Below are positions 25,151 through 59,900 of a DNA stretch of 64,000 bases, piece after piece (position 1 is the first letter of the stretch; each line of letters begins with the position of its first letter). The translations under genes were made by a program, and so were the position numbers. The stretch is from Phycisphaerae bacterium (lineage in GTDB: Bacteria > Planctomycetota > Phycisphaerae > UBA1845): NCBI GenBank assembly GCA_029260135.1, contig JAJDDV010000081.1, positions 47,710 to 111,709 of the forward strand. The letters are read 5' to 3'. A model generated the notes under the pieces. It was not told where the DNA came from, did no database searches, and was given only the letters and a program-made list of their open reading frames with translations.

Positions 25151-25195
25151 GATGGAAGTCCATCCCTCAGTAGACGTCAGGCAATCCTGCGGCCC

Positions 25196-31762: not shown

Positions 31763-31958
31763 GGTCACTCCTTCAAAAGGGTAAAGAGGCCGTCCATAAC
31801 AAGTATAAGGTTCCGACGCGCAGAGGTCCAACCGCCACTGTTCGCGATTGAAACAGAACGGTATCGGGTCTAGCCTGGGGCGGACCTTCTACGCTACGCT
31901 GGACGTCCCAAGCGCCCGCGTCCTGTCAGTGGGGCGGGTGTGCGGCAGGGAGCAATCG

Positions 31959-35262: not shown

Positions 35263-35377
35263 CTTGACCCCTGAAACCCCACGCCCGACGCGATTATTCC
35301 CAGCCAACCCGAACAATCAGAATTCGCAGGGCACGCAGACTTGGAAAACACGATTCTCGGAACTTCACCCAGCCGGG

Positions 35378-35563
35378 CTACGAACCGCCCCTCGCCGCCG
35401 GTGCGACCCCATCGTCGACGATCGCCGAACGAACATCGCCGCCCTTCGTCAAGCGAAGCTCCAGAACCGTTCGCGTTCGCCCGCAGGTCATATGAATGAC
35501 CGTCTCCGGCATGTCGAACGAGTGGGATCCGCCGCAGGCAGGACAGTCAAATCGAACCAACAT
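35378..35563 (-). CDS. Small hypothetical protein with zinc-ribbon-like start
   Basis: 61 aa 'MLVRFDCPACGGSHSFDMPETVIHMTCGRTRTVLELRLTKGGDVRSAIVDD'. Confidence 0.45.
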   Translation of the reverse strand: MLVRFDCPACGGSHSFDMPETVIHMTCGRTRTVLELRLTKGGDVRSAIVDDGVAPAARGGS

Positions 35564-35641
35564 CTCCGATCACCTTCCTCGAAACCATCATTCACCGACG
35601 CGCCACACTGGGGCACCGACCGCCGCCCCCGCACCCCTGTC

Positions 35642-37162: not shown

Positions 37163-37542
37163 GCAATACTCACCTATCGGCACCTCTGCTGCGGCACATT
37201 CTACGGGTCCTTCCCCGGCCGATAACTCACCGCGTGTCGATGCCTTCACCAATTCCGAAGCCACGCTCTCTCGAAAACGCCATGGCGACGGCAATCTCCA
37301 CCGTCAACCAAATCATGCCGCCCGGCCCTTCCGCGACGGCGAGCCACGTATTGTGCCCGATCCTCAAGTGCGAATCCAGCAATCCACGCCCCGATTCTCG
37401 GAAACTCACGACCAGCCGCTGGCGCCGATCTGCGCCATACAGACCCTCCGCCGCCGGACGGAACCCCGTCCGATGAACATTCTGCGTGAGAGGCTCAGGA
37501 TGAAACCAGAAGACGGGAAGCTGCGAAACGGTGAAAACGAGA

Positions 37543-37926
37543 CTAAACGGCCTGATCAGCAACGTCGAACGCCGCGCCGACGAGATACCCCTTGATCCCA
37601 ACCGTGCAGTGCGTCACGTGCGCCGGAAGCCACGGCGATGAATTGTCCCCCGAAAACTCCCGAACCCAGATCTCGCCGCCGTTGCGAAGCTGACGCCGCG
37701 ACCAAAATGCAAAGCCGCTGTCGGAAATGTTGTGCATCGTCGCCGGCCAAGCGCACTGCTCCACATCCGGATCCGTCGTCACGTCAAGCCGCATACCCAC
37801 CGCAAACCGCGGCGCCGATCTTCCATCCGTACGCTTCTCCGGCTGACCGTCCGTCCTCGCGACGGATACCAGCCGAGTGATTTCCTCGTGATGCTCCTGC
37901 GTGTTCGGTTGATCTTGGTCGGTCAT
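37543..37926 (-). CDS. PilZ-like domain protein
   Basis: 'KRTDGRSAPRFAVGMRLDVTTDP...WPATMHNISDSGFAFWSRRQLRNGGEIWVREF...HVTHCTVGIKGYLVGAAF' matches the PilZ pattern (R...R, S.sG). Confidence 0.68.
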   Translation of the reverse strand: MTDQDQPNTQEHHEEITRLVSVARTDGQPEKRTDGRSAPRFAVGMRLDVTTDPDVEQCAWPATMHNISDSGFAFWSRRQLRNGGEIWVREFSGDNSSPWLPAHVTHCTVGIKGYLVGAAFDVADQAV

Positions 37927-38462
37927 GAAAAAGTCTCTTTCGCACCGCGACGACGGCATTCAATGCCCTCGTAATGTCGGTTGATCCGGTGCTCGGGTTG
38001 GAGAATCGAGGCGCGTTTACAGGATTATGGGACATTCAGCCCAGACGACGCCCAGACCGAGCGGCCGAACACCGATAATGCAGATGCGCGAGAAGCTCAC
38101 GGCCCCATCGAGGCCGCGAGCTTCTCATCGCTCGTGTGGAGGAACGGAAGGTCTGTTTTTTTCTTTCCCACGCCGACGACCACATGCCATCGACGTTCAC
38201 TGAGCAATACGACACCGGATCCTCCGTCTGTCACTCCCTCGCACTTTTTCTTTGCCCGCCGCAGGCGCCCGAGAGAAGCTTCCCAGAATCACCCCCTCCT
38301 GCGACAGTAGACCCGATAAGGCCGCCAGGACCGCAAAACTTGCCGCCATCCCGTGCCCACGGGTAGGATTCAGCCGGTACAAACCCGGCAAGCGGTCCAT
38401 CGAAATGAGACCAGGTCCGGCTGTTCCGCGATCGAACAGGCGCACCGGAGAACGGAATCGAC

Positions 38463-40955
38463 GTGTCGAACTGCCTCCAGCTACTCGACTTTGAACGCCT
38501 CCACACCGGACTTCTCAGCCAGTCCGATGCAAAGCGCATGCACGACCATCTGCGTTCCTGTGACGCCTGCCGCGTTGCCTACGAACAATACCAGCAGGAC
38601 CAGGCCTTCCTCGAAAAAGCCCTTCCACAGCTCAGCGATGACTCCGACTCGCGTCACGGCGATTCCACCGCACCATCATTCCGAAAGCGAAGCGCCGCAA
38701 GCCACACCCCGAACATCGAAGGCTATCGAATCACCGGAGTCCTCGGACAAGGCGGCATGGGCATCGTCTATCGGGCCGTGCAGGCCAACCTCAATCGAAC
38801 CGTTGCGCTCAAGGTCCTGCCTGCCATGGTCGGCGCAGCCAGCCCGTCCGCCGTATCACGCTTCCAGCGCGAAGCGACCGCCGCCGCGAGACTCCACCAC
38901 ACGCACATCGTCCCCATCTACGATTTTGGCGAATCACACGACGCCTACTACTACGCCATGGAACTGATCGCCGGACATCCGCTCAGTGTTGTCATCAGAC
39001 ACTTCGCCGAAAAGAACGCCGCTTCCGCCTCGCCCGCGCAACTGGCCACACTGCTCCAGAACGTCACCTCGGGCGCCGGATCACTCCCGCCCGCGAGCAT
39101 CGCTCCAGGACTCTCCGCCGACGACACACCCAGCATGACCGCCGTCTCCTCCGGCGGACGCGGCCGCCTCTATTTCCGCCAAGTGGCGCGCTGGATGGCC
39201 GACGCCGCCGACGCCCTGCACTACGCCCACGGCCAGGGCATCATCCACCGTGACATCAAACCCGCCAACCTGATCCTCTCCACCGATGGCCGCATCATGG
39301 TCGCCGACTTCGGACTCGCCAAGAGCGTCGACGAAGAAACCGTCACCATGACCGGTTCGCTCCTCGGCACCGTGCGATACCTCAGCCCCGAACAGGCGAT
39401 GGCCAGGCGCGTCGCCGTCGATCACCGCACTGACATCTACTCGCTCGGTGCGACCATGTACGAGCTTCTCTGCTTTCAACCGACCTTCCCCGGAACCGAC
39501 GACAAACAGGTTCTCAGCTCGATCATCACACGCGAGCCGATGCCGCCGCGACGCGTCGCACCGAGCGTACCATCCGAACTCGAAACCATCTGCCTCAAAG
39601 CGCTCGAGAAGTCGCCCGACGAACGCTACGACACTGCCCGCGGCTTCGCCGACGACCTGCGACGCTATACCCAGGACCTCCCCATCATCGCGAAACGTCC
39701 GGGACCCGTCGCACGAACGCTCAAGTTTGCGCGGCGACACAAGGTCCCCGTCATCGCTGGCGTAATCATTGTGCTTCTCATCACTGTGGGATCGGCTTGG
39801 GTGAACGTCGAGCGATCGCGAAGGGCTGCTGAGGTCGCACAGGAACGGCAGAGAACACAGGAAGCATCCGAGAGGCAGCGCAAGGCCGAGGAACGTCGCC
39901 GCGACGCCGATGATCGCCGCCGCAAAGCCGAGATGGAGAGCATCATCCAGGAAGCCCTGCGCGCGGAGAAGACGGGTGATCTGAACCTCGCGGTTTCAAA
40001 CCTCCGATATGCACTCGATGAGTACGACGAGAATCACGCTCGTGCGTTGGGAAACCTGGCGAGGATGCTCAAAGAAAAGTACAACCGAGTGGACTACGAA
40101 AACACTGAGTTGCTCAAAGAGGCGATGGAATGCTGCGAGAAGGCCATTAGACTCGCCTCCACTGAAAAGGAGGACGAGAACCTTGCGCGGTATAACAACC
40201 TCAAGGGCGTACTGCTGAAGAAGCTCGGGCGGTACGACGAGGCGCTCGAATTCTACAGCGGTGCTATCGACCTGAACGAGAACGACGACGCCGCCTGGGA
40301 GAACCTCGCCGTAACGTACGCGCTCAAGAACGATCTGGATGCCGCTGAACAAAACATGAGGGAGGCAACCAGATTGGTCGGCGATCAGAAGGGAAAGATG
40401 TGCGAGACTTCCTGGCGCAGTCTTGCTTCGCTGCTGCTATTTCAAGAGAATTCCGATGCCTTCACGGCTGTCGAACAAGCCCTCGACTGCCGCAGCGACG
40501 ATCAATGGTCGACGCTGATCAGTGCCCGTGTCCGACTGTTACTTCCAGGCTACACGGATTCCCAAGCGGCGTGGGCCGCCGCCGACTTTGCCCATCGAAA
40601 ACGTACGGAACGCTCGATCCCTTACGCGCGGTACGCCACCCGTCTCCTGGCAATCGCCAACCTTCGCGAAGAACGGTTTGGCGACGCACGAAGGCTCGCC
40701 AACAAAGCCATCGATGCCGGCGACATGGAGTCCATAAACCGTATCATCCTGGCCATTGCCGAAGCCGATGCTGGGAACTTTGGATTGGGCCGTGATGCCC
40801 TGGCTCAGGCGTTGGTGTCCTGGCCGCCCGACCTGACCGAACCGGGACAATTCCGCGTCGAAGCGCCAGAAGGGGTCTTGTGGTTCGAAACCGCCAACGA
40901 GCTGCTCGGACTCAAAGCCGAAGCCGAGTCACTCCTCGAAACCGTAAGACCCTGA
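38463..40955 (+). CDS. Serine/threonine protein kinase with N-terminal zf-HC2-like finger and C-terminal TPR repeats
   Basis: 'HDHLRSCDACRVAYEQY' (HxxxCxxC); 'LGQGGMGIVYRAVQANLNRTVALKVL', 'IIHRDIKPANLIL', 'ADFGLAKSVDEETVTMTGSLLGTVRYLSPEQA'; TM; TPRs. Confidence 0.94.
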   Translation: MSNCLQLLDFERLHTGLLSQSDAKRMHDHLRSCDACRVAYEQYQQDQAFLEKALPQLSDDSDSRHGDSTAPSFRKRSAASHTPNIEGYRITGVLGQGGMGIVYRAVQANLNRTVALKVLPAMVGAASPSAVSRFQREATAAARLHHTHIVPIYDFGESHDAYYYAMELIAGHPLSVVIRHFAEKNAASASPAQLATLLQNVTSGAGSLPPASIAPGLSADDTPSMTAVSSGGRGRLYFRQVARWMADAADALHYAHGQGIIHRDIKPANLILSTDGRIMVADFGLAKSVDEETVTMTGSLLGTVRYLSPEQAMARRVAVDHRTDIYSLGATMYELLCFQPTFPGTDDKQVLSSIITREPMPPRRVAPSVPSELETICLKALEKSPDERYDTARGFADDLRRYTQDLPIIAKRPGPVARTLKFARRHKVPVIAGVIIVLLITVGSAWVNVERSRRAAEVAQERQRTQEASERQRKAEERRRDADDRRRKAEMESIIQEALRAEKTGDLNLAVSNLRYALDEYDENHARALGNLARMLKEKYNRVDYENTELLKEAMECCEKAIRLASTEKEDENLARYNNLKGVLLKKLGRYDEALEFYSGAIDLNENDDAAWENLAVTYALKNDLDAAEQNMREATRLVGDQKGKMCETSWRSLASLLLFQENSDAFTAVEQALDCRSDDQWSTLISARVRLLLPGYTDSQAAWAAADFAHRKRTERSIPYARYATRLLAIANLREERFGDARRLANKAIDAGDMESINRIILAIAEADAGNFGLGRDALAQALVSWPPDLTEPGQFRVEAPEGVLWFETANELLGLKAEAESLLETVRP

Positions 40956-41360
40956 CCGCCCTCCACCGGCTTGACCGACGTCGCCCACCGGTCGGACCGA
41001 CTTTCCACTCGGTCATTTCAGCGCGTGACGGGGTCCCAAAAGGCACACTTGCCATCTCGCACAAGGCGAGCACGACTCGACCGAGGCAACGTCACGAGGA
41101 GATCGCACGCGCTCGCCCGCTCGCAGTAGACCGTCCAAGCCTCTGCCACTGGGTCGCCGGCGACGGAAGACGAATAACCGACGACTTGCTGCATTCTCAG
41201 CGGCGAAACAAACGGGACAGGCACCGCGCCCTGTCATTTCTTGCCGATTTGCGGTACAATTTACGTCAGATTTCGCGCGACGATTCGTAGTCACCCACGG
41301 TAAAGTGCGCGGACATGTCCCACGCACCCAGTTGGGCGACCCTCGCGAAAGGAGGGGCCG

Positions 41361-44300
41361 ATGTACGTTCACCGAACGACACGGAGTCGAATCAGAGGAA
41401 ACGTAGCCGCGCGCATGACGGCCATCGTCTGCGCAAGCGGCGCGTTCCTCGCAGGGGCAAGCGCAGGAGGAGACCCAGACCCTCCACCCCGTCACCAACC
41501 ACCCCAGGAACTCTCGCCCGTCGCCAACCTCAGCGACCTCAACACCGCCAACACGCCACCCATCGTCACGCACGCCGCGATTCCACTTTCGGCCTCAAAG
41601 ATCCCAAAGCGCGGGCGGACGCCTCTTACACACATTGCGACGAACGCCAGACAAGCCGCCCCGTGTCGTGTCGATGGCGACTGCGACGACTGCGACCTCT
41701 GCACCCTCGACACGTGCGTCGCACAGACCTGTCTCAACGACCTGATTCCAATCGGACAGTTTGTGCCCGGCGCCGAGTGCGACGACAGCCTCGTGTGCAA
41801 CGGGCTGGAAACCTGCAGCTTCGGTGCTTGCGTTCCGGGCGTTCCCCTCTGCAGCGATGGCATGATCTGCAATGAGTCCGCGCAAGTCTGCGAGCTTCCC
41901 TGCCTCATCGACGCCGACTGCGAACGCGACGGCCTCGCCTGCACAACCGATCTGTGTGATGCGAGGATCTGCGTCGGCGGACTGGCCGACGGCCTGAGCT
42001 GTCGTTTCGACGAAGATTGCCCCCAAGGTACGTGTTCCGCGGGCGGAAGCGGCGCCTGCATCGTGGGAAACAACCCGTGCGGACCCGGTGCGCGCTGCGC
42101 CGAAGATCAAGCCGGCGGCGTGGTCTGCCCGCTCGGTCGGTGCTGTGACGCGCTGGGAACATGTCAGCGATTGACACAGGCCGACTGTGCGACCGCCGGC
42201 GATGCGTGGCTCTACACCGGCGATAACTCCTTATCCTGTGCCGCAGACCCCTGCCCGGCCTACGCCGCGGGAGTATCCCCGCAAGGCGCCTTCCCTGTGG
42301 CCGTTGGGTCGATCACTGCATCCGGTGTTTGCAGCGATACGATCCAAAGCCTGGGCGATGACTACACCATCGCTGGCACCACGTTCGTCGAACTTCGCAC
42401 CGTCCGTTGGGTAGGCGGCGTCGACAACGCCGGCGATGTCGTCGCGTTTGAATGGTATGACGCAAGCGGCATCTTGATCGAAGATGAGTTCGTCACCGTC
42501 ACGACGGCCGGAACCGCCGTACACACGTTCGACCTTCCCGTACCATTGACCATCCCCGCGTCCGGGTTCATGGCGGTCCGAATCGCATCGTCCTTCACAC
42601 CGGGAGCGCGCTTCCACTGGCTCTCGACCGACAGCCCTGATACTGGAGGCAACGACCCCGACATACTCATCCTTGACGGCGCCATCGTGGGGCTCAGCCC
42701 GCTAGGTCGCTGCGCAGGCGGCGACCGCGACGGCCTCTGGTGCGATACGGCAAGCCCGAACTGCCCGGGAGGAGGATGCACAGACGTCCCCGACACCCTC
42801 GCCTTCGAACTCGTGGCGGATCCCGTCTCGTCTCCGATCGGTGCATGTTGCGACCCTGCCTTGGGAACGTGTACGAACGACCTCCGGTGGGTCTGTACGG
42901 ATAACGGCCACTTGTTTCAGGGCGAAGGAACCGCTTGCAGGCGCTGCAGCAACGATATGTTCTTGAATTGCGATGCAGATGGCGACTGCCCAGCCTGCAG
43001 TGGTATTCCAGGCTTCTGCGAGTTCGACGAACTGACGGCCTGCTCCGTCGACGCCGACTGCATCAGTGTGGGCGGCGGGCGATGCCTCGCAACACCCTGC
43101 GACGTCAACGCCGAATGTCCCGGCGGACTTTGTGTCGTGGGAACTTGCAGCGGCGGAAGCAACGACACCAACCCCTGCAGCCCCGACGCCGATTGCGGCG
43201 GCGGAACCTGCTCGGCAACAGCCACGTGTGATGCCGTTCCACCCGGGTGCGACATCGGCGCATGCTGCGACGACATCGACGGTTCGTGTGTTGAAATCAT
43301 CTCCCCGACGAGCTGCCCGGCCGGAATGACCTTCCAGGGCTACGGCACCCACTGCCAGCCAAACGCATGTATTCAACCGGGCCCCACCGGCGGCGACAAC
43401 TGTGCGACCGCACCGGTGATAGGGATCACCGTTCCGGCGCTGGGACAACCACCAGCCGTCGTGACCATCACAGGCAACAATGCGACAGCCACGTTCGACG
43501 ATGCGGTCACCGGACGATGCGTCGGCGGCATCAATGATGGATCCGCGTGCGATCCGTGGGCGGGCGACCCGCTCATCGAGTGTCCCGGCGGTTTGTGCAT
43601 AGCACTCTGCGACGCACCGATCTTCGACCCCGCCGGCAACACGCGCGATCCGGGATGGTGGGAAGCCGTCCAGCTCAACGATTGCGCCGATGTACGCATC
43701 GACTTTTGTGCCACGCTCCCGACACTCACACCGGCCTGGCCCATGCTCTACAGCGACTGCCCGTGCGGTTCACCCGTGACGGGCGCCGGCGTCCCGTCGC
43801 CCGTCGGCGCCGGTGACGACGAAGCCGGCTTCGCCTACGGCGACCCCTTCTGCACCGGTGGCAACGCATGGGTGACGTTCGCCACGCTCCCGCCCGGTGT
43901 CTACTACTATCCGGTCTACTCCGGCCCGACCTCCACCATGGCCGTACCGCCCGGCGGGTCGTATCAACTCCACATCACCGCGGCCGCTTGCCGCCAGGCG
44001 GCCTGCTGCTCGACCGTCTGCAGCGGCGGCGTTCGTGACGCCGAAGCGTGTAACGTCGATGGTCACGCTGATTGCCCCAACGGAATCTGCAGTGTGGGAT
44101 TCTGCCTCGGTGGCGAATTGCACGGCTTCTCGTGTGACGCCGGCGGCGTCGACGAATGTCCGGCCGGCGTGTGCGACGGAACCCTCGGCTGCTCCGTCAC
44201 CACCGAAGCGATGTGCAAAGCCGCAAATGGACAATGGCTCGCCGGCCCCGACTTCCCCGACGCAATCTGCAACGGCGGAACCAACGATGGACAAGTCTGC

Positions 44301-47300
44301 GCCGACGACTCTGAGTGCCAAGGTGGTGGCACTTGTATGGCCAACCTCGAAATCCCCACCTGCCTCGGCACCCCCTGCGACACCGGCGCCTGCTGCAGCG
44401 GCCCGGGCGCCTGCTTCGACCGACTCCCCGGTGACATCCCCGTCACCGAGCCCGACTGCCTTGCCGGCACCTTCGTCGGCGGCGTCCGATGCGGTTTTCA
44501 CTCGTCGTTGTGTGAGGTGTGTGGGATTGAGGTCGGTCAAAACTGCCAACCGGCTGACACCGCTGTCGTGCAGATGAGTGATTTGGATGCCGGCACGCGG
44601 GTTTCGGACAATTTCAGTCCGATAAGCGACGCGATTTCGGTGCTATGTGTGACAGGAAGTTGGCTGGATTTGACACGCGTGGGGCCGCGAATTGACTGCG
44701 CGTGCCAACTGGATGACACCGATGGCTGCGTTCCGACGGTGGCGGATCAGTTCACGGTCACGCTCTACGACGACGTGAACGGCAAGCCGGGGAGCGTGGT
44801 GGGGAGTTCGGGTGTTACGGTGACGCCTGATCGTGGATTGAAGGAGACGTTTGCGAACTTCGATCTCTGGGATGTTTCGATGGCGTTGGACAGCCCGATT
44901 TCGGGGCTGACGCCGGGAGGATGTTACTGGATCGAGGTGACGAACGACACGACGGATCTGCCGGGCAGCTGCAACTGGTATTGGGCGAGCAGCAGCGGGG
45001 CCGGTGACGGAGCGGCGGCGGCGGGGGACGACGTCGGCGGTCCGGGCGCGGAGGTCGGGTTTGACCTGGCGTTCTGCGTGGACGCGGGGATCGTGGCGCC
45101 GGGGTGTGGAACGCGGACGGGGGCCTGCTGCGCCTGCGACGGCACGTGTGCCAACACGGTGACACTTTCCGACTGCACGTCCGGGACATGGCATGAAGAT
45201 CAGACGTGCGCGCAGATCACGTGCCATCCGATCGGCGTTCCCGGTGACGACTGCACGACCGAGATTCAGGCCGTCACCGATGCGACCATGCCGTACCAGA
45301 ACCTGTGCGCCACGACGGACGGTCCCGCGTCGATCGACTGCGGCGCGGGAACCCAAGCGTTCGGTCGAGATACGTGGTTCTCGTACACGGCGGCGTGTGA
45401 CGGCGTGCTGGTGGCGAGTCTCTGCGAGGGGACGGACTTCGACGCCATCCTTGGCGTTTACAGCGACGGTACGGCGTCATGTCCATGTCCGGGCGACAAC
45501 ACGACGCTGGCGGCGTGCGATGACAACGGCTGTGCGAGCGCGGTCTCCTTGTTCGAGCATTCGCCGACGCCGTGCAACGATGCGGCGTGCGGCAAGCAAG
45601 CGCCGATGGCGTGCCTTCCGGCCACGGCGGGCGCGTGCTATACGCTTCGCATCGGCGGTGTCGACGGTGCACGGGGAAGCGGCAACCTCAACGTGGCCTG
45701 CATCGGCGATGTCATCTATGTCAACGACGACGCTTCGGGCGCGAACAGCGGATCGAGCTGGGCCAACGCTTTCATGGATTTGCAGGACGCGCTGCACGCG
45801 GCCGATCTTGCGCGAAGCTGTTCGGATCTGGCGCTGAATCCTCAGGTTTGGGTGGCGGAGGGCACGTACCGTCCTGACCGAGGGACGAGTGACCGGGATG
45901 CGTCGTTCGATCTCGTGGCGGGGATTTCGGTATTTGGTGGTTTTTCAGGGATCGAAACGACTTTGATGGAGCGGGACTGGGCTGCACACCCGACGATCCT
46001 CAGCGGTGAGATCGGTGCGCCGGGGGACCCGATGGACAACAGCTATCACGTGGTGACGGCTGACGCCGGGCGTTCGGGTTCTTTGCTCGACGGTTTCGTG
46101 ATCGAAGCGGGGTACGCGGACGGGCTGGGCCCGGCGGACCGAGGCGGCGGGTTGTTTAACTCGTCGGGTGAGGCGGTGGTTGCGAACGTCATTTTCCGTT
46201 CGAACGAAGCGTCTCAGGGCGCCGGGATGTACCAGGACGGCGGTAGCGTTTCGCTGGTCAACTGTTTGTTCAGCGGGAACATCGGGATGGAGGGCGGGGG
46301 GATCTTCGTGGCGGGGGGCGATCTATCGGTCGCGAACGGCACGCTGAGTCAGAACACGTCTGCGGTGGCCGCGGGCGGCGGCGTCTACGCGCTGGATGCC
46401 AGTGGATTGACACTCGACAACACGATTCTCTGGGGAAACGTCGGCATTGGTGGCGTGTTGAGCAATCAGATCTTCGACGCGTCGGGGCTCATCACCCTTC
46501 GGTTCAGCTGTGTTGAGGGTTATGACGGTGCGATCCTCGGTGGGTCGGGCAACATCAGCGCCAACCCTCTCTTTGTCAATCCGCTCGGTGGAGATGGTGT
46601 GGCGGGTACGGCGGATGACGCCCTTCAACTCAGTGCGGGATCGCCGTGCATTGATGCAGGTGATCGCACGAGGGTGCCGATCGACGTATTGGATTCCGAT
46701 GGTGACGGCGACGCTACGGAGCCTTGGCCTTTCGATCTCGATGCGGAGCTACGCATCGGCGACGACGGTCAGACGGCGGATACGGGGCGCGGTTGCCCGT
46801 ACGTGGTGGACATGGGCGCGTACGAGTTTCCGCCCGACTGCAACGGCAACGGCGTTTCGGATCCGGTGGATATCACGCTCGGCACAAGTCTGGACTGCAA
46901 CTTCAACCGGATTCCTGACGAGTGCGAGATCGACGAAAACAGTGTCGCTCCCGGCGGCCCGTTCTACTGTCCGTCGGGTAGTCCGGATTGTGATCCCGAC
47001 TGCAACGGAAACGGGATACCGGACAAGTGCGACTCGCCCGACTGCAACGACAACGACGTTCCGGACGTGTGCGAGATTCCGGTGGGATGCGTCGGTCCGG
47101 AGCCGACGTACTACTGCACCGTAGGGTGTGACGACGACTGCAACACGAATTGCATTCCGGACGAGTGTGACATCGCGGACTGCCCGGCGGGGTTCGTGAA
47201 CCCGGAGGACTGCGACGACTGCAACCAGAACCGCGTTCCGGACGAATGCGACATCAGTGCGGGGACTTCTCCGGATGTCGACACGAACGGCGTACCGGAT

Positions 47301-49343
47301 GAGTGTACGAGTTCGGTGCCGGGTGCGACGGGCAGTTGGAGCAGCGGCGCGAACTGGATCGGCGGGGCGGCGCCGGGAGTGACTTCCGGCGTGACGTTGA
47401 GTCCGTTCAGCACGCTTCAGGTCGACGTGGACGTCACCGTGGCGGCGCTGCGCACGCGCGGGGAGTCTCAGCTGAACATCAATGCGGGCGGCGGAAGTGG
47501 GGATCTGAATGTCGCCGGCAAGATTCACAGTGCGGGCGATATTTTGCTGGACACGCACACGATGACCGCGGCGAATCTCTCGCTGGACGGTTCGGGTTTC
47601 CGGGGCGGGTTGACGGTGCAGGGTTCGTCGAGTGTGAATCTTGGTGGCGGAGAGCTGTTGATCGAGGTGGGTGGTTCGTATTCGTCGAATGATCCTCCGA
47701 GTGGCGCCTCGGCGAGCCTGAACGCCAGTCGTGTTGCCCTTGGCATCTCGTTTGGGGGCGTGGCTTCGAGTATGGCGTTGAAGGACTCGATGACGGTCAC
47801 CACGTCGTCACACTTCGTGCTGGACGGTCGTGTGGACGGTCCGCTGAGTCCGCTGCTGACGGGGCGCGGCGTGGTTGCACGGGGCGGCAAGACACCGCCG
47901 ATCCTTCGCATATCGCCCCCGACGTACCTTTCCCGTTCGAGGGTACATCGGGGGGTCGCGGTTGAGACCGCGCCGCTGACCATCGAAGGATCGTTGCAGA
48001 TTCTCACTGAGGCGAAGGTCTGTGTCGGTGGTGACGCCGCTCAGCCGCAGAGTTGCAGCGCGAGTCCGGTCGACGATCTGGCGAAGGTTGTGTTGCTCGG
48101 CGATTTCGACAATCAGAGCGTGTATGCGAGTTTGTTCAACTGGCGTCATGGCGGTTTGCGTCTGGAGGCCGGTGGCGCGGGGCAGGTGTTCGAGGTTGCG
48201 GGGATTGATCTTGGGCCGGTCCACGAGGGCTTCGAGACGAGTGAGCCGACGGCGGTTGAGAGCTGTTTCTTTGAGGGCACGCACACGAATTTTTCGATGA
48301 AGGTGGTCGAGGTGGCGGCGAACGCTTCTGTCACGTTCCGAAACCGGGTGCTCAACACGGCGGGCAGTCATCCCTGCGCGGAAGCGCTTTATGTTGACCA
48401 TCTGATTTTGGAGTCGGGCGCCCAGCTCACGCTCGATGATTGCCGCGTGTACTATCGGGAGCTGACGGATAACTCGGGGACGGTTCCCACGCTCGAGGGG
48501 TGTGGGGAGCTACTTCGGGTTCGGACGTCGCAGTGTAGTCCGGGGTCGGCACCCGAGCCCGACCGATTACTTGACTCAGGGAATGTCCTGGTGATCAACA
48601 TCAAGAACCGGTTCGTTTCGTTTGCGGTGACGGACGGAAGCGACCAGGCGGTTCGCGTGACATTTGTCGATCTTCCGGGCGGATTCAGCGTGTTTAACGG
48701 GACGACGATGTGGGTCGACGTGCCGGTCGAATACAGTGAAGGCGGTGGACGTGGATTCAACAACCCGTGCACGGTTGGTTCGCCTTGTCCGGAGGGGAGC
48801 TTTCTTTCGTCGACGTTGTCGGCGACGCCTGTGTATCGCGATTGGTCAGTTGACGGTCGAGTGGTTCATGTTCGCGATGAGTTGATCATTCCGCACGCGT
48901 TGTATCGCGTCGACACGATCGGCGTGGACTGCTCGTTGGCGGACCCGTCGCATTACTCGGATCCGCTGCTGATCGGCAACGCGAAGTGGGGTGATGCGGT
49001 AGAGCTTTCCGCGGGAGAGTGGCGTGCGGCTGAGGCGAAGTGTGGCAACACCGGAAGCGCGTGTCTCCGAGATATCGACTGCCCTGGCAGCACTTGCGGT
49101 ACGGTGTCTGTTTTCGATACTCTGGGGATGTTGGCGAAGTTCTCGGGTGCGCCTGGCGCACCTGCCAAGGCCCGGATGGATATGCTCGGTGTCGTGACGG
49201 GGCCATCGCCAATTGTCGACGGGAAGATCACGGTGAGCGATACGGTATCGGTGCTGGGTGCGTTTGGGGGTGACCCGTATCCGTTCAGTGCGCCGACGGT
49301 CGTTCACATACCTGAGCCTGCTTACGAGGCGTACGAGGAGTAG
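41361..49343 (+). CDS. Giant secreted Cys-rich repeat protein with beta-helix region, DCNxNGxPDEC repeats and dockerin-like C-terminus
   Basis: 2,660-aa ORF with AAAGGAGG SD; signal peptide; arrays of CxGGxxxGxxCxxDxDCxGGxC and GACC..GxC modules; 'IYVNDDASGANSGSSWANAFMDLQDAL' beta-helix start; C-terminal 'DTLGMLAKFSGAPG...DGKITVSDTVSVLGAFGG'. Confidence 0.88.
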   Translation: MYVHRTTRSRIRGNVAARMTAIVCASGAFLAGASAGGDPDPPPRHQPPQELSPVANLSDLNTANTPPIVTHAAIPLSASKIPKRGRTPLTHIATNARQAAPCRVDGDCDDCDLCTLDTCVAQTCLNDLIPIGQFVPGAECDDSLVCNGLETCSFGACVPGVPLCSDGMICNESAQVCELPCLIDADCERDGLACTTDLCDARICVGGLADGLSCRFDEDCPQGTCSAGGSGACIVGNNPCGPGARCAEDQAGGVVCPLGRCCDALGTCQRLTQADCATAGDAWLYTGDNSLSCAADPCPAYAAGVSPQGAFPVAVGSITASGVCSDTIQSLGDDYTIAGTTFVELRTVRWVGGVDNAGDVVAFEWYDASGILIEDEFVTVTTAGTAVHTFDLPVPLTIPASGFMAVRIASSFTPGARFHWLSTDSPDTGGNDPDILILDGAIVGLSPLGRCAGGDRDGLWCDTASPNCPGGGCTDVPDTLAFELVADPVSSPIGACCDPALGTCTNDLRWVCTDNGHLFQGEGTACRRCSNDMFLNCDADGDCPACSGIPGFCEFDELTACSVDADCISVGGGRCLATPCDVNAECPGGLCVVGTCSGGSNDTNPCSPDADCGGGTCSATATCDAVPPGCDIGACCDDIDGSCVEIISPTSCPAGMTFQGYGTHCQPNACIQPGPTGGDNCATAPVIGITVPALGQPPAVVTITGNNATATFDDAVTGRCVGGINDGSACDPWAGDPLIECPGGLCIALCDAPIFDPAGNTRDPGWWEAVQLNDCADVRIDFCATLPTLTPAWPMLYSDCPCGSPVTGAGVPSPVGAGDDEAGFAYGDPFCTGGNAWVTFATLPPGVYYYPVYSGPTSTMAVPPGGSYQLHITAAACRQAACCSTVCSGGVRDAEACNVDGHADCPNGICSVGFCLGGELHGFSCDAGGVDECPAGVCDGTLGCSVTTEAMCKAANGQWLAGPDFPDAICNGGTNDGQVCADDSECQGGGTCMANLEIPTCLGTPCDTGACCSGPGACFDRLPGDIPVTEPDCLAGTFVGGVRCGFHSSLCEVCGIEVGQNCQPADTAVVQMSDLDAGTRVSDNFSPISDAISVLCVTGSWLDLTRVGPRIDCACQLDDTDGCVPTVADQFTVTLYDDVNGKPGSVVGSSGVTVTPDRGLKETFANFDLWDVSMALDSPISGLTPGGCYWIEVTNDTTDLPGSCNWYWASSSGAGDGAAAAGDDVGGPGAEVGFDLAFCVDAGIVAPGCGTRTGACCACDGTCANTVTLSDCTSGTWHEDQTCAQITCHPIGVPGDDCTTEIQAVTDATMPYQNLCATTDGPASIDCGAGTQAFGRDTWFSYTAACDGVLVASLCEGTDFDAILGVYSDGTASCPCPGDNTTLAACDDNGCASAVSLFEHSPTPCNDAACGKQAPMACLPATAGACYTLRIGGVDGARGSGNLNVACIGDVIYVNDDASGANSGSSWANAFMDLQDALHAADLARSCSDLALNPQVWVAEGTYRPDRGTSDRDASFDLVAGISVFGGFSGIETTLMERDWAAHPTILSGEIGAPGDPMDNSYHVVTADAGRSGSLLDGFVIEAGYADGLGPADRGGGLFNSSGEAVVANVIFRSNEASQGAGMYQDGGSVSLVNCLFSGNIGMEGGGIFVAGGDLSVANGTLSQNTSAVAAGGGVYALDASGLTLDNTILWGNVGIGGVLSNQIFDASGLITLRFSCVEGYDGAILGGSGNISANPLFVNPLGGDGVAGTADDALQLSAGSPCIDAGDRTRVPIDVLDSDGDGDATEPWPFDLDAELRIGDDGQTADTGRGCPYVVDMGAYEFPPDCNGNGVSDPVDITLGTSLDCNFNRIPDECEIDENSVAPGGPFYCPSGSPDCDPDCNGNGIPDKCDSPDCNDNDVPDVCEIPVGCVGPEPTYYCTVGCDDDCNTNCIPDECDIADCPAGFVNPEDCDDCNQNRVPDECDISAGTSPDVDTNGVPDECTSSVPGATGSWSSGANWIGGAAPGVTSGVTLSPFSTLQVDVDVTVAALRTRGESQLNINAGGGSGDLNVAGKIHSAGDILLDTHTMTAANLSLDGSGFRGGLTVQGSSSVNLGGGELLIEVGGSYSSNDPPSGASASLNASRVALGISFGGVASSMALKDSMTVTTSSHFVLDGRVDGPLSPLLTGRGVVARGGKTPPILRISPPTYLSRSRVHRGVAVETAPLTIEGSLQILTEAKVCVGGDAAQPQSCSASPVDDLAKVVLLGDFDNQSVYASLFNWRHGGLRLEAGGAGQVFEVAGIDLGPVHEGFETSEPTAVESCFFEGTHTNFSMKVVEVAANASVTFRNRVLNTAGSHPCAEALYVDHLILESGAQLTLDDCRVYYRELTDNSGTVPTLEGCGELLRVRTSQCSPGSAPEPDRLLDSGNVLVINIKNRFVSFAVTDGSDQAVRVTFVDLPGGFSVFNGTTMWVDVPVEYSEGGGRGFNNPCTVGSPCPEGSFLSSTLSATPVYRDWSVDGRVVHVRDELIIPHALYRVDTIGVDCSLADPSHYSDPLLIGNAKWGDAVELSAGEWRAAEAKCGNTGSACLRDIDCPGSTCGTVSVFDTLGMLAKFSGAPGAPAKARMDMLGVVTGPSPIVDGKITVSDTVSVLGAFGGDPYPFSAPTVVHIPEPAYEAYEE
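46836..47309 (+). repeat. Seven tandem DCNxNGxPDEC-type (TSP3/EF-loop-like) protein repeats within the giant ORF
   Basis: DCNGNGVSDPVDI, DCNFNRIPDECEI, DCNGNGIPDKCDS, DCNDNDVPDVCEI, DCNTNCIPDECDI, DCNQNRVPDECDI, DVDTNGVPDECTS. Confidence 0.85.
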
Positions 49344-49348
49344 ATCCG

Positions 49349-49921
49349 ATGGAATCGACACGCGCGAGCCTCCTGGAACGGGTGAGGAATCCGCAGGACG
49401 ACGAGAGCTGGCGAGAGTTCTTCCACATTTATCAGCCGCTGCTGTATCGATACTCGCGGATTCGCGGATTGACCCGGGAAAACGCGGAGGAGCTGACGCA
49501 GCAGTGCCTGGCGCTTTTGACGGAGAAGATGCCGTCGTTCGAGTACGTGAAGGAGAAGGGTGGTTTCAAGCACTGGCTTCGCCGGATCACGAACAACAAG
49601 GTGAACGACTTTTTCAAGAAGCGGAAGTTGCCTTTGGCGCAGAGCGGCGATTATCGCCGGCCTCAGTATCGGGAGATTTCGCCGGACGATCTTTGGGAGC
49701 AGCAGTGGCATAAGCGTCATCTTCAGTATTGCCTGGTGCAGGTTCAGTCGGAGGTGGCCGCGAGCACGTACAAGGCCTTCGAGTATCACGTGCTCTGTAG
49801 CTGGCCTGTGGACCGGGTCGCGGAGACGCTGAACATCTCCGTGGATCAGGTGTATACGGCGAAATCACGGATCACGCGGCGGCTTCGGACGAAGATGAAG
49901 GAGCTTCTGGGCGAAGTGTGA
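49349..49921 (+). CDS. ECF-type sigma factor (sigma-70 family)
   Basis: 'SWREFFHIYQPLLYRYSRIRGLTRENAEELTQQCLALLTEKMPSFEYVKEKGGFKHWLRRITNNKVNDFFKKRK'; C-terminal 'VDRVAETLNISVDQVYTAKSRITRRLRTKMKELL'; starts 5 nt after the giant ORF stop. Confidence 0.9.
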   Translation: MESTRASLLERVRNPQDDESWREFFHIYQPLLYRYSRIRGLTRENAEELTQQCLALLTEKMPSFEYVKEKGGFKHWLRRITNNKVNDFFKKRKLPLAQSGDYRRPQYREISPDDLWEQQWHKRHLQYCLVQVQSEVAASTYKAFEYHVLCSWPVDRVAETLNISVDQVYTAKSRITRRLRTKMKELLGEV

Positions 49922-50008
49922 ACGGGTGGAGGTGGATTCGCGCTCCGGCGCATCGCCGTTCCGAGTGGAGACGGCGGTGACACCTCCGAACGAGAGCGTA
50001 GACCTGTT

Positions 50009-51877
50009 TCACGGTCCCGTGAAGGACGCCTGGACCAGCGCCAAATCGCCCAGATCCACGTCGTTGTCGTGCTGCAGATCAGCGGCCGTGCAGCCTGCGG
50101 TGGGCGACACATTCGGTCCTTCGAAGCACGGCAGCATCAGCAGCAGGTCATCTTTGTTGACCCGGCCGTCATGGTCGACATCCCCGACACAACCTGGACA
50201 TATTCCGAAAACCGTGATGACACCGTCTCTCGGGATGTCCGCGACGAGCGTCTCGCCGGCGAGTACGCCTTGGTTTTCCAGGTCCACGTCGAACTGATTC
50301 GAGGTCGTGAATTTGATTCCATACGTTCCGGCGGGAAGACCGTGAACGGATAGGGTGCCGACTCCATCGGCCTTAACGACAACGACAACGGTGTCGTCGA
50401 CGTTGGCAAAGGCGAGCGGGTCAAATCCGGCGTTGTCGCCGGTCGCCTGCAGGCGCACCGCGCCGCGGCGTATAAACTTGAAGTACTGGCGCAAGAATTT
50501 TGTCCTACTCCCCAGTGTGATCAGGGGATTAGCATCCGTGCCGGGCCCTGGGGTAGCCGTATCATCAATACGAAAATAATGACCGCCATTATCATTGGCC
50601 GTGGTCCAAGCCAGTGTAAACTGCTGCCACGCGGAGTTGTTGCCGAGCTTGAGATCTTTGTGCAGGTCCAGATGACCGCTGCCAATATGCTCGAGCATAG
50701 AGGTGTTGAGACCGTGGGTCTGAGCCAGCGCGGCGATGGTCGACAGGTTTGCGTCCGAGACCCCGCAATAGCGGTGATACGACAACTCGACCACGTGCTG
50801 CATGGCTCCAGTCACATTGGCCAGGTCGTTGAAATATGTGATTGCGTTGTTCATGCATGTGTTGGACGGCGCGACGAAACGCGGCGTAAAGCCGTTGGCC
50901 GACAATCGGGCGGCGGCCTCCACCATCGCTTGTCCGATCAGCGTGCCGTTCCACTCCGCCACGTTGTCCGGCTCGAGAATCACTTCCCACGTATCGGGTA
51001 CCCAGCCGTACTTGGTTTGAAGGTGGAGATACGTGGCCAGCACGAATTCGGCGTATTCCTGAGGATCGTCATGAATATAGACCAAACCCGGCGTGCCACT
51101 CTCGCCGATTTGCTTGGTGAATCCGACGTAATTGAGATTGATGAAGAGTGTCTCACCGTTGGCTTCCAGGCGCTGTTTGAGCGGTAAGACGACCTTGTCC
51201 ACTGCGAGGTCGAGCTGGGAGAACTGGAAACCGCTCATGTTCAGGTCGAACGGGTCCGCATTGTCGTTTACGGTCGAGCCGCGAACGTCTCGCCAGCTTC
51301 CAATCGCATCCCTCTCGGGAATCAGGCCGTCTTGGAACTGTTGCCAGAAGTCCTCCTGGTTCTCCGCGCCGCTCATGATCTCCAGGCGGATTCGATTGAT
51401 CCCCAGATCTTTGACGGCCAGATCGTACAAGGCATCTTTATAGTTCTCGAACGCCGGGCTGGTTTCATGGCCGGCTTGGGCGGTCGCCTCCCATCCCGTG
51501 ATCGTCTGAAAGGTGATCGATGGATTCAGTGTGATGATCGTGTCGACACAAGCGTCTGCCGTTTCATCGCACGTCCGGCCCGTGCAAGGCGCAGCATCCG
51601 ACAGACATGCTCCTGCTTGACAGGCTTCGGTGCCGTCGCAGAACAGGCCATTGTCGCACTCCGTATTCAAGGAACATAGCGCGGCCTCCGCTTCTGACCA
51701 GAGCGTTTCGCCTGCTGACAGGTTGCCATTCGATTCGCGGGTACACCACGTGGTCAGGAGTGACGTGCTCAGTAGCATGCTCAGCGAAACGATCGTCCAA
51801 TGCGCGCTAACGGCGCGCCGCGCAGCGCTACATTGCCCGGACGTGGAACTCTGCGGACATGGCAAGTCGATGTACAA
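50009..51877 (-). CDS. Secreted glycoside hydrolase-like protein (GH30/clan GH-A-like) with Cys-rich N-terminal module and C-terminal dockerin-type repeats
   Basis: 'FQTITGWEATAQAG', 'LGINRIRLEIMSGAEN', 'DTWEVILEPDNVAEWNG', 'MLEHIGSGHLDL'; C-terminal 'GDVDHDGRVNKDDLLLMLPCFEG...DLQHDNDVDLGDLALVQASFTGP'. Start uncertain. Confidence 0.78.
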   Translation of the reverse strand: MYIDLPCPQSSTSGQCSAARRAVSAHWTIVSLSMLLSTSLLTTWCTRESNGNLSAGETLWSEAEAALCSLNTECDNGLFCDGTEACQAGACLSDAAPCTGRTCDETADACVDTIITLNPSITFQTITGWEATAQAGHETSPAFENYKDALYDLAVKDLGINRIRLEIMSGAENQEDFWQQFQDGLIPERDAIGSWRDVRGSTVNDNADPFDLNMSGFQFSQLDLAVDKVVLPLKQRLEANGETLFINLNYVGFTKQIGESGTPGLVYIHDDPQEYAEFVLATYLHLQTKYGWVPDTWEVILEPDNVAEWNGTLIGQAMVEAAARLSANGFTPRFVAPSNTCMNNAITYFNDLANVTGAMQHVVELSYHRYCGVSDANLSTIAALAQTHGLNTSMLEHIGSGHLDLHKDLKLGNNSAWQQFTLAWTTANDNGGHYFRIDDTATPGPGTDANPLITLGSRTKFLRQYFKFIRRGAVRLQATGDNAGFDPLAFANVDDTVVVVVKADGVGTLSVHGLPAGTYGIKFTTSNQFDVDLENQGVLAGETLVADIPRDGVITVFGICPGCVGDVDHDGRVNKDDLLLMLPCFEGPNVSPTAGCTAADLQHDNDVDLGDLALVQASFTGP

Positions 51878-51996
51878 ACCGGGATTCTCCGTTGGCCGGA
51901 CTTTGGACAGTCATTCTATCCCGGGAAGTCTCCGGGACAAGGCGGAGCCGCGTGGCTGCGGCTTATCGGACACCCAGGCCCGCGTCGTCCACGTCT

Positions 51997-52006
51997 GGGG
52001 GGGGGG
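51997..52006 (+). repeat. Homopolymer G10 tract
   Basis: acgtct-gggggggggg-cggtgg read directly. Confidence 0.9.
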
Positions 52007-52101
52007 CGGTGGTGAGTGCGAACGGGCATGCCCCTGCGTTCGGCAGGGCACGCGAGGTCTGCAGGGCGATGCTGTGGTCGGCGCGTTTTCGCGTCTTGCG
52101 C

Positions 52102-52131
52102 TCACCGTAGCCCTCTTCCTGGGGGAGAGGG
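52102..52131 (+). repeat. REP-like palindrome (tcaccgtagccctcttcctgggggagagggg)
   Basis: ccctcttcc / ggagaggg stem-loop; resembles the recurrent bacterial intergenic 'CCCTCACCCTAGCCCTCTCCC...GGGAGAGGG' type. Confidence 0.5.
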
Positions 52132-52139
52132 GATACTCG

Positions 52140-52174
52140 CATGCCCGCGCCTTGGGCTCTGGCATGACACCTGG
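52140..52174 (+). repeat. Intergenic hairpin repeat, copy B (catgcccgcgccttgggctctggcatgacacctgg)
   Basis: First 14 nt identical to copy A at 7031 and overall closely similar over 35 nt. Confidence 0.6.
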
Positions 52175-52206
52175 GATCGGGCTGCGTGCCGTGGGCCGAC
52201 TTCAAC

Positions 52207-52295
52207 CGGAGAGGGGGGGATTCGAACCCCCGGTACGGTGTAACCCGCACACTGGTTTTCGAAACCAGCTCCTTCAGCCGCTCGGACACCTCTCC
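52207..52295 (-). tRNA. tRNA-Ser (anticodon CGA)
   Basis: Minus strand GGAGAGGTGTCCGAGCGGCTGAAGGAGCTGGTTTCGAAAACCAGTGTGCGGGTTACACCGTACCGGGGGTTCGAATCCCCCCCTCTCCG: 7-bp acceptor, CTGGT-TTCGAAA-ACCAG anticodon arm, long variable arm, TTCGAAT T-loop. Confidence 0.97.
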
Positions 52296-52452
52296 AACGC
52301 GAATTCACTGGCCCCAGGCGTGATTGTCACGCGGTCAGGGCTCAGGATCGCGCCACCTTTTGGGCGGTGGCTTGGCGGAGTGTAGCTCAAAGGCGGGTCG
52401 GCGCAAAGGGGTGGGTGGACAGGAGCGGTGCCGGTCGGGTATTCGTTGTCAC

Positions 52453-53559
52453 ATGAGCGAATGCACGAACATGAAGCGGATCGGCGTGTTGACGGGCGGC
52501 GGGGATTGCCCGGGGCTCAACGCGGTGATCCGTGCGGTGACGAAATCGGCGATCGCCGAACACGGGCTCGAGGTGCTTGGGATCGAGGACGGATTCCTGG
52601 GCTTGATCGAAAACCGGATCCGGCCGCTGCGGTTCTCGGATGTCTCGAACATTCTCGATCAGGGCGGGACGATACTCGGGACGAGCAACAAGGCGGACCC
52701 GGCGCGGTTCTGCGTTGGGCAAGACCGTAAGGGTTCCCCGATCTTCGAGGATGTTTCGGATCGGGCGGTGGGTCATGCGCGGGATCGCGGGCTTGATGTG
52801 TTGGTTTGCATCGGGGGTGACGGGACGATGTCGGGTGCTTCTCGTTTGGTCGGGCACGGGCTTTCTGTGGTTGGTGTGCCCAAGACGATCGACAACGATC
52901 TGATGCACACGGATGTAACATTCGGGTTCGACACGGCTGTTTCGACTGCGACGGAGGCGCTCGATCGGATTCGTACGACGGCGTCGAGTCATCATCGGGT
53001 GATGCTGGTGGAGATGATGGGTCGCAATGCGGGTTGGTTGACGTTGCACGCGGGGGCGGCGGGGGGCGCGGACGTGATCCTGATTCCGGAGATCGGGTAC
53101 GACGTCGAAAAGCTTTGTGCGCGTTGCGTGGACCGGAGCCGGCATCATAAGGCGTATACGCTGGTGGCGGTTTCCGAGGGCGCGAAGCCGGCGGGTGGTG
53201 AGGTGGTGGTGGATCGGGTGGTCCATGAATCGCCGGATCCGATACGGCTCGGCGGGGTGAGCGAGGTTCTGAGCGAGCAGATCAGCGAGGGCACGCAGCT
53301 CGAGAGTCGCGCGACGATTCTGGGTCATGTTCAGCGCGGCGGAAGGCCTACGGCTCATGATCGCGTGCTGGCGACGCAGTTCGGTCATCACGCGGTTGAG
53401 ATGATCATGCGGGGTGAACTGAACCGGATGGTGGCGATGCAGGGTGGGCGACTCACGACGGTTTCGATTACTGAGGTTGCGGATCGGCAGCGACTGGTTC
53501 CGCTTGATGATCCGCTCTTGACGGCGAGTCGCGCGATGGGTGTTTCGATGGGGGATTGA
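52453..53559 (+). CDS. 6-phosphofructokinase
   Basis: 'IGVLTGGGDCPGLNAVIRAV', 'CIGGDGTMSGASRL', 'GVPKTIDNDLMHTDVTFGFDTAV', 'EMMGRNAGWLTLHAG', 'LGHVQRGGRPTAHDRVLATQFG'. Confidence 0.94.
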   Translation: MSECTNMKRIGVLTGGGDCPGLNAVIRAVTKSAIAEHGLEVLGIEDGFLGLIENRIRPLRFSDVSNILDQGGTILGTSNKADPARFCVGQDRKGSPIFEDVSDRAVGHARDRGLDVLVCIGGDGTMSGASRLVGHGLSVVGVPKTIDNDLMHTDVTFGFDTAVSTATEALDRIRTTASSHHRVMLVEMMGRNAGWLTLHAGAAGGADVILIPEIGYDVEKLCARCVDRSRHHKAYTLVAVSEGAKPAGGEVVVDRVVHESPDPIRLGGVSEVLSEQISEGTQLESRATILGHVQRGGRPTAHDRVLATQFGHHAVEMIMRGELNRMVAMQGGRLTTVSITEVADRQRLVPLDDPLLTASRAMGVSMGD

Positions 53560-53580
53560 GACGTTTGTAGTCCTCAGTTG

Positions 53581-54327
53581 TCAGTTCTCGGTTTCTGTCC
53601 GTATGTCCTTTCTGAAGATCATCAGCGCTCGACGCGCTTGTCCTGTATCGGTGTTCAGGGCATAGGTGAAATTTGGGGCCGGGCAAAGATGGAGTCGCCG
53701 GGCGGTGGTCACGGTAGCGTCATCGACTTCGGTTCCTTCGGATGAGGCGGTCTGGTAGGCGACGAGGTAGCCGTCATCTGCGAGGAATTGTGCGGTTTGC
53801 TCCAGGGCGGTTGGAAGGGATCGCAGGGCGCGGAACAGGACAAGCTGAAAACCGGTACCGGCGTCCGGGGCGATGTTCTGTGGGGGATTCTTCTCGGGCG
53901 TCTGCAGGTTCCAGTGTTTCGAATGGGCATGCACGGCGTGCAGATTTGTTGCGTTGAGCTCCGCGGCGGTGTTGCGAAGGAAGTCGATCTTCTTGCGTGT
54001 GGCGTCGATGGCCGTGATGGACCAGTCGGGTCGCATGACGGCAAGTGGAAAGGCGGGGAAGCCGGCGCCGGTGCCGACGTCGAGGATGGTTTGCACATTG
54101 ACGTCGGCATCTGCGATCCATCGCAAGAGGGCGAGTGAGTCGGCGTAGTGCTTGACGGCGGCGGCGGTGGGCTCGGTGATTCGGGTGAGGTTGGTGGTCT
54201 TGTTGGTCTCGACCATGGCCTGGTAGTGGGCCGCGAGAAGACCGAGTTGATCTTCGGTGATTGCGAGGTCCCAGCGGGCCAGGGCGTCGGTCAGGGCGTT
54301 GTTGAAGATCGGAAGATCGCCGGACAT
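53581..54327 (-). CDS. rsmG: 16S rRNA (guanine(527)-N(7))-methyltransferase RsmG
   Basis: 'NLTRITEPTAAAVKHYADSLALLRW', 'ILDVGTGAGFPAFPLAVMRPDWSITAIDATRKKIDFL'. Confidence 0.92.
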   Translation of the reverse strand: MSGDLPIFNNALTDALARWDLAITEDQLGLLAAHYQAMVETNKTTNLTRITEPTAAAVKHYADSLALLRWIADADVNVQTILDVGTGAGFPAFPLAVMRPDWSITAIDATRKKIDFLRNTAAELNATNLHAVHAHSKHWNLQTPEKNPPQNIAPDAGTGFQLVLFRALRSLPTALEQTAQFLADDGYLVAYQTASSEGTEVDDATVTTARRLHLCPAPNFTYALNTDTGQARRALMIFRKDIRTETEN

Positions 54328-54372
54328 TCGTCCATGATGCGCTACGCGGGCGGGATCGTGAAGGGGTCAAGG

Positions 54373-55404: not shown

Positions 55405-55526
55405 CGCGCATCCTTCCGTGGACTCAGTTTGGACATCCTTGTCCTGCGTTGCCTGCTGTCGGCGCTGGGCTGTTGCGTGAGTCCGTAAAGAGGGGATATC
55501 GGCGAAGGGGAAGGGCGGGCTTGATG

Positions 55527-56699: not shown

Positions 56700-56853
56700 G
56701 TTGTGTCCGTTTGGGCAGTCAGCGAGTGGATCGATGCTCGCCTCTGCGCAAGCGCGGGTACGCGACCGGGTTGACGCGGAGGGGCCATGTGAGATGTGCT
56801 CCGCGGTGAACCGTTTCGTCTATCGTCGTGTCCGTTTTGCGTTTGCGTTTTTT

Positions 56854-58215: not shown

Positions 58216-58349
58216 CCACAGCCTCCTTGTCGAAGTTGATTCAAGAGGATCATGTTATCGCGCGTCGGTCAAGTCAAGGGTGGGTACCGCCTAAACGATA
58301 AGCACTGGGGTACGAATGCCGAGGTGCGCTCGATGCATACGGAGCAGGT

Positions 58350-59870: not shown

Positions 59871-59900
59871 GGACGTTGATCGCTGAGGAGGCTCTATCCT

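What the first reader, a model, noticed from the sequence alone, without database searches (positions are those of the whole stretch)
44400..44560. Abrupt GC-skew inversion inside one giant ORF: possible chimeric gene, inversion breakpoint or assembly junction
By hand count, + strand 44221-44460 has about 97 C vs 65 G, while 44521-44820 has about 69 C vs 110 G. The flip falls in the repeat copy 'GACCSGPGACFDRLPGDIPVTEPDCLAGTFVGGVRCGFHSSLC'. Spot counts suggest the bias is independent of coding strand: the minus-strand gene stretch 36241-36300 has C22/G15, and the minus-strand gene stretch 54961-55020 has C14/G25. Because the same Cys-rich module recurs on both sides, and probably elsewhere in the genome, one explanation is inversion or recombination between family members that joined two replichore orientations. 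A MAG mis-join at a repeat, or a replication-origin-type skew switch, are alternatives. Upstream, the skew also seems to alternate (G-rich near 10-16 kb, C-rich near 25-44 kb), which would fit more than one rearrangement.
Basis: partly seen in the sequence, partly recalled or inferred. Interest (0 to 1): 0.75.

Follow-up and report, generated by a model that had tools for sequence, protein, structure and literature searches.

The report
Sawtooth strand skew, many origin-like sites
The sudden switch in DNA letter bias inside one giant gene is one tooth of a repeating sawtooth along this Phycisphaerae-like bacterium's chromosome, with abrupt upward steps about every 40 kb that often sit on a paired TGACA/TGTCA motif, which looks like many dispersed replication start sites, something bacteria are not known to have.

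Summary
The flip is real and very sharp. Fourfold-site C/G goes from 311/133 to 210/486 inside ORF 41361-49343; the change point is window 44,495 (support 44,486-44,519). It holds for genes on both strands. It is not a chimeric gene, inversion or mis-join. The protein aligns collinearly across the flip with a paralogue and with relatives. Rearrangement should make equally sharp upward and downward jumps, but here sharp jumps go only up. Contig C204 (111.7 kb) shows a sawtooth with upward jumps at contig 14.9, 55.4 and 92.2 kb (the finding) and gradual declines between. Across 1.37 Mb of this genome there are 12 upward and 0 downward jumps of at least 0.18; control bacteria give 2 and 2. Change points are enriched for TGWCA-N5/6-TGWCA pairs, the most over-represented pentamer spacing in the genome. 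On contigs not used for discovery the association holds (permutation P=0.0003). Best explanation: many fixed bidirectional replication-initiation sites, about one per 40 kb, giving a bacterial analogue of eukaryotic skew N-domains. The pattern and motif association are shown. Replication as the cause is inferred. Not all jumps carry a pair, and pairs in three related genera do not mark jumps.

The parts
44486..44519 (.). Skew change point (ML position 44,495): C/A-rich to G/T-rich + strand, at about codon 1045 of the giant ORF
   Evidence: contig 92203, support 92194-92227, delta-lnL 141
41361..49343 (+). Host ORF, 2660 aa Cys-rich secreted-type giant protein; intact and collinear with relatives across the flip
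44432..44436 (+). TGACA box 1 of 5 near the change point
   Evidence: sequence
44555..44559 (+). TGACA box 2
   Evidence: sequence
44650..44654 (+). TGACA box 3; 21 bp (two helical turns) from box 4
   Evidence: sequence
44671..44675 (+). TGACA box 4
   Evidence: sequence
44714..44718 (+). TGACA box 5
   Evidence: sequence
7672..44494 (.). One 36.8-kb sawtooth domain: skew falls from about +0.14 through 0 near 22-24 kb to about -0.2 in 35-37 kb, staying negative to the flip
44495..64000 (.). G/T-rich arm of the next domain, runs to the contig end
7240..8224 (.). Previous upward jump of the sawtooth (ML 7,672), softer
   Evidence: contig 55380, support 54948-55932
7068..7093 (.). TGACA and TGTCA boxes 21 bp apart, about 600 bp from the softer jump

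Best explanation
The flip is one tooth of a chromosome-wide sawtooth in strand composition. At fixed points about 40 kb apart the + strand changes abruptly from C/A-rich to G/T-rich, then drifts back gradually until the next point. The most likely mechanism is replication-associated mutation bias in a bacterium whose chromosome is copied from many fixed bidirectional initiation sites, on the order of a hundred. Forks leave each site in both directions, so the step is abrupt there. They meet at variable places in between, so the decline is gradual. Many of the sites carry pairs of the near-palindromic pentamer TGWCA spaced 10-11 bp (one helical turn), plausibly the binding site of an initiator or loader protein. 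Shown here: the sawtooth, its up/down asymmetry, its independence of coding strand, and the motif association. Inferred: that replication causes it, that G/T marks the leading strand, and that a protein binds TGWCA.
For: Contig C204 shows three upward jumps with gradual declines between them. Other long contigs show the same, e.g. C3 at 4.4 and 54.9 kb. Raw skew jumps of at least 0.18: 12 up, 0 down; distribution skewness 0.91, against 2/2 and 0.07 in 67 control loci from other bacteria. Fourfold sites, jumps of at least 0.45: 10 up, 1 down. Skew is the same for genes on both strands (left -0.22/-0.13, right +0.30/+0.25) and genes are not co-oriented with it (0.44), so transcription does not explain it. 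TGACA/TGTCA at 11-bp spacing is the strongest pentamer-spacing excess in the genome (24 vs about 2.5, P=5e-16). 8 of 14 change points have a 10/11-bp pair within 500 bp against 3% coverage. Contigs excluded from discovery: permutation P=0.0003; 20 contigs fetched afterwards: P=0.0013. TGWCAN6TGWCA occurs 100 times in the genome against 2 for the reversed control. The C3:54,935 jump has a pair at +60 bp; the loci of 29 relatives show neither that pair nor a comparable step there. Skew N-domains with upward jumps at initiation zones and linear decline are the accepted human replication signature (PMC3320577).
Against: No replication data exist; skew is indirect evidence. 6 of 14 jumps, including the one in this window by strict spacing, have no 10/11-bp pair within 500 bp. 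More than half of pair clusters in this genome are not at strong jumps. In related genera G030, G031 and G009 the pairs do not mark jumps, and G030 has at most a weak sawtooth. There is no AT-rich unwinding element at the jumps. dnaA genes are present and their contig C95 shows only weak skew. Which strand is leading could not be verified. The genome is a fragmented MAG, and only 26% of it was read.
Confidence: 0.52

Rival explanations
1. Multiple initiations occur, but the fixed TGWCA points are where forks converge (fork barriers), and initiation is dispersed between them. This holds if the leading strand is C/A-rich in this lineage.
For: The sawtooth is equally compatible with this if the skew sign is reversed; no independent proof of sign was obtained. 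No unwinding element at the sites.
Against: G/T-rich leading strands are the bacterial norm (established knowledge). Well-defined starts with diffuse ends is the usual arrangement.
Confidence: 0.1
2. The sites are programmed breaks or recombination hotspots. Recombination-dependent replication or strand-biased repair spreads outward from them and gives the asymmetry without classical origins.
For: Sharp symmetric steps with decay over about 15-20 kb at a short motif placed without regard to genes. No AT-rich element.
Against: No nuclease or initiator identified. Simple 5'-end resection with cytosine deamination would give the opposite sign (inference).
Confidence: 0.15
3. Mosaic of inversions or recombination between Cys-rich paralogues, the reader's main idea, in an ordinary single-origin chromosome.
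For: Gene order around the flanking genes varies widely among relatives. A paralogue on C117 also has a step inside its ORF.
Against: Up/down asymmetry 12:0; jumps in unrelated genes; motif association; collinear homologues across the flip.
Confidence: 0.1
4. Assembly artefact or MAG mis-join at a repeat.
For: The genome is a fragmented MAG of 224 contigs, and the module does recur in the genome.
Against: Uninterrupted 2660-aa frame with conserved architecture across the flip. Only short partial DNA matches elsewhere in the genome, 44-47 bp at 81%. The same kind of step appears on many contigs and correlates with a motif.
Confidence: 0.03
5. TGWCA pairs are sites of a regulator or nucleoid protein unrelated to skew, and the skew has another unknown replicative cause.
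For: The motif is enriched in most genomes of the family and several in the order; some order-level copies are Pho-box-like direct repeats. In G030, G031 and G009 the pairs do not mark jumps.
Against: In this genome the association survives held-out testing. The pairs lie in coding DNA at the genome average and in all four orientations, unlike promoters or Pho boxes.
Confidence: 0.1

Closest known systems
Skew N-domains (factory-roof skew) of mammalian chromosomes
   Same: Abrupt upward skew jumps at fixed points with gradual decline between; interpreted as fixed initiation zones with dispersed termination (PMC3320577).
   Different: Here in a bacterial genome, domains about 40 kb instead of megabases, sharpest steps resolved to 30-150 bp, and a short paired motif at many steps.
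Multi-origin archaeal chromosomes (Sulfolobus, Haloferax)
   Same: Several skew polarity changes in one chromosome, each attributed to an origin (PMC3269012).
   Different: Archaea have a few origins with Orc1/Cdc6 boxes; here the count extrapolates to about a hundred, in a bacterium with dnaA.
Bacteria proposed from skew to have multiple origins (Wigglesworthia, Wolbachia, Synechocystis 6803, Mycoplasma pulmonis)
   Same: Multiple-origin replication proposed from strand asymmetry in bacterial genomes (PMC3269012).
   Different: Those proposals rest on irregular plots that the author says may reflect rearrangement; here the up/down asymmetry and a motif association argue against rearrangement.
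Single bacterial oriC with DnaA boxes
   Same: C/A-rich to G/T-rich switch at a point.
   Different: Many switches, no TTATCCACA in 1.37 Mb, no AT-rich element, not at dnaA.
PhoB Pho box (TGTCA direct repeats 11 bp apart; recalled from general knowledge)
   Same: Same pentamer and spacing.
   Different: Here inverted and direct pairs are about equally common, and sites are mostly inside coding DNA.

Membership tests
Skew N-domain / multi-origin replication domains | Sharp skew jumps in one direction only | tested here: met
   12 up, 0 down at >=0.18; control bacteria 2/2
Skew N-domain / multi-origin replication domains | Gradual decline of skew between jumps | tested here: met
   C204, C3, C33, C40 and other profiles
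Skew N-domain / multi-origin replication domains | Independent of coding strand | tested here: met
Skew N-domain / multi-origin replication domains | Initiation zones at the jumps shown by replication timing or nascent strands | not testable with these tools
   no replication data
Canonical bacterial oriC | Cluster of DnaA boxes near dnaA | tested here: not met
   TTATCCACA count 0; relaxed boxes rare and essentially absent from 16 jump regions scanned; dnaA genes are on another contig, C95
Canonical bacterial oriC | AT-rich unwinding element | tested here: not met
   AT 0.35-0.39 around jumps vs genome 0.38
Inversion breakpoint / chimeric gene | Equal numbers of sharp up and down steps; non-collinear halves | tested here: not met
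Pho box | Direct repeats only, in promoters | tested here: not met
   58 of 100 11-bp pairs are inverted; sites in coding DNA at genome average

The most novel reading that the evidence does not exclude
A bacterium whose chromosome is duplicated from about a hundred dispersed, sequence-defined origins roughly 40 kb apart, marked by TGWCA-N5/6-TGWCA pairs and an unidentified initiator (the divergent second DnaA is one candidate), giving eukaryote-like replication domains.
Probability: 0.4. Interest if true: 0.97.

Novelty: new variant of a known kind. Interest (0 to 1): 0.82.

Why it matters
Bacteria are taken to copy each chromosome from a single origin (e.g. PMC7174701). A bacterial genome with a one-directional sawtooth of strand skew about every 40 kb, tied to a short paired motif, would make natural multi-origin replication in bacteria directly testable with one marker-frequency or nascent-strand experiment. 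It would also give a compact model for N-domain-like replication programs.

Tried and rejected
Chimeric gene or paralogue recombination: rejected on collinearity with homologues and on jumps in unrelated genes. Inversion mosaic: rejected on up/down asymmetry. Transcription-driven skew: rejected, no gene co-orientation and same skew on both coding strands. Single oriC at this place: dnaA lies on another contig and there are many jumps. Pho box / promoter motif: rejected on orientation and location. R-loop (oriK-type) replication through loss of RNase HI: not supported, an RNase H gene is present. Conservation of one jump (mreD) in relatives: absent, so that site is lineage-specific. Genus-level generality: pairs in G031, G009 and G030 do not mark jumps. 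Leading-strand sign from rRNA/ribosomal genes: inconclusive. Naming the organism by a public-genome scan: the scan was too generic; the best hit was a Phycisphaerae MAG at 48%.

Full report
What was claimed and what is there. It is real. Windowed skew is negative to about 44 kb and positive after. In ORF 41361-49343 every 300-bp bin of fourfold-degenerate sites is C-biased up to about 44.5 kb and G-biased after. Totals are C311/G133 left and C210/G486 right. A change-point fit places the switch at window 44,495, with support over only 33 bp. The skew is seen in genes of both orientations on each side, so it belongs to the DNA strand, not to coding.

Not a chimera. The window is the right-hand 64 kb of a 111.7-kb contig (C204) in a 5.35-Mb MAG. 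The giant protein is Cys-rich with a weak beta-helix match. Its Cys-rich N half and its C half occur together, in the same order, in a paralogue on C146 and in relatives G032 and G031. An alignment with the C146 paralogue and two G032 homologues is collinear through the flip at about residue 1045. Homologues do not show the same sign flip at that place. The composition change is therefore specific to this genome and not a fusion joint.

A sawtooth, not a single switch. On the whole contig the skew jumps up sharply at 14.9 kb, more softly at 55.4 kb, and sharply at 92.2 kb (the finding). It declines gradually between jumps. Other contigs behave alike. In the 1.37 Mb read (26% of the genome), raw jumps of at least 0.18 number 12 upward and none downward. 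The same scan of 67 loci from other bacteria gives 2 and 2, with a symmetric distribution. At fourfold sites the count is 10 to 1 for steps of at least 0.45. Inversions or mis-joins make one sharp step of each sign, so they do not explain this. Genes are not co-oriented with the skew (0.44), so transcription does not either. Whatever the sign convention, replicative polarity that alternates about every 40 kb implies initiation in every domain.

A motif at the steps. Words enriched around the 14 best change points were GTGACA/GTGTCA, besides C-runs expected from skew. The copies come in pairs 10 or 11 bp apart. Independently of the jumps, TGACA/TGTCA at 11 bp is the most over-represented of 17,408 pentamer-spacing combinations in the genome (24 against about 2.5, P=5e-16). 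Eight of 14 change points have such a pair within 500 bp, where 3% coverage predicts 0.4. That count reuses the discovery set, so it was tested on held-out contigs by circular-shift permutation with nearby sites merged: P=0.0003 for contigs outside discovery and P=0.0013 for 20 contigs fetched afterwards. Averaged over all pairs, whether or not they lie at jumps, the skew steps at the pair and decays over about 15 kb. Pairs lie in coding DNA at the genome average and in all orientations, unlike promoters or Pho boxes. Genome-wide there are 100 copies at 11 bp against 2 for the reversed control. In this window the flip has five TGACA boxes within 290 bp, two of them 21 bp apart, but no strict 10/11-bp pair within 500 bp.

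Limits. Six of the 14 jumps lack a nearby strict pair, and about half of pair clusters are not at strong jumps. The pair motif is enriched in much of the family, yet in G030, G031 and G009 it does not mark jumps. The mreD jump and its pair are absent from 29 relatives. This is consistent with a lineage-specific site, but it also means the phenomenon is so far seen in one genome. Jumps are not AT-rich. The leading-strand sign was not proved. The two dnaA genes, one with a divergent domain IV motif (NKNHSTV), lie on C95, where skew is weak.

Best reading. The sawtooth matches the skew N-domains of mammalian chromosomes, read as fixed initiation zones with dispersed termination (PMC3320577). Multi-origin skew in bacteria has been suggested before for a few genomes with irregular plots, with rearrangement noted as an alternative (PMC3269012). 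Here asymmetry and motif association argue against rearrangement. The pattern is well supported; the replication mechanism is inferred, at about even odds. Fork barriers, programmed breaks or another site-directed asymmetry remain open.

Noticed in passing
window 50009-51877 (-): A 622-aa dockerin-type gene with near-zero skew inside a strongly G/T-rich arm; probably a recent arrival not yet at local composition.
   Followed up: no
contig C95 8144-9637 and 18466-20133 (loci L119, L120): Two DnaA genes 10 kb apart, one with canonical GRDHSTV and one with NKNHSTV in the DNA-binding domain; most relatives searched, across the order, also have two.
   Followed up: partly
G000 C146, C180, C117, C169, C3, C38 and others; window 41361-49343: A large family of Cys-rich giant proteins (1.7-2.7 thousand residues) with many paralogues in this genome and members in most relatives.
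   Followed up: partly
window 38463-49921: Ser/Thr kinase with TPR, giant Cys-rich protein and an ECF-type sigma factor in a row on one strand.
   Followed up: no
1.37 Mb of this genome: The E. coli DnaA box TTATCCACA does not occur at all.
   Followed up: no
relatives G031 and G009, whole genomes: TGWCAN6TGWCA is strongly enriched (86 vs 1 and 103 vs 11 controls), roughly one per 45-50 kb, without skew steps at the sampled copies; what binds it there is unknown.
   Followed up: partly
L148 14841-14936 (-), contig C28: Predicted selenocysteine tRNA.
   Followed up: no
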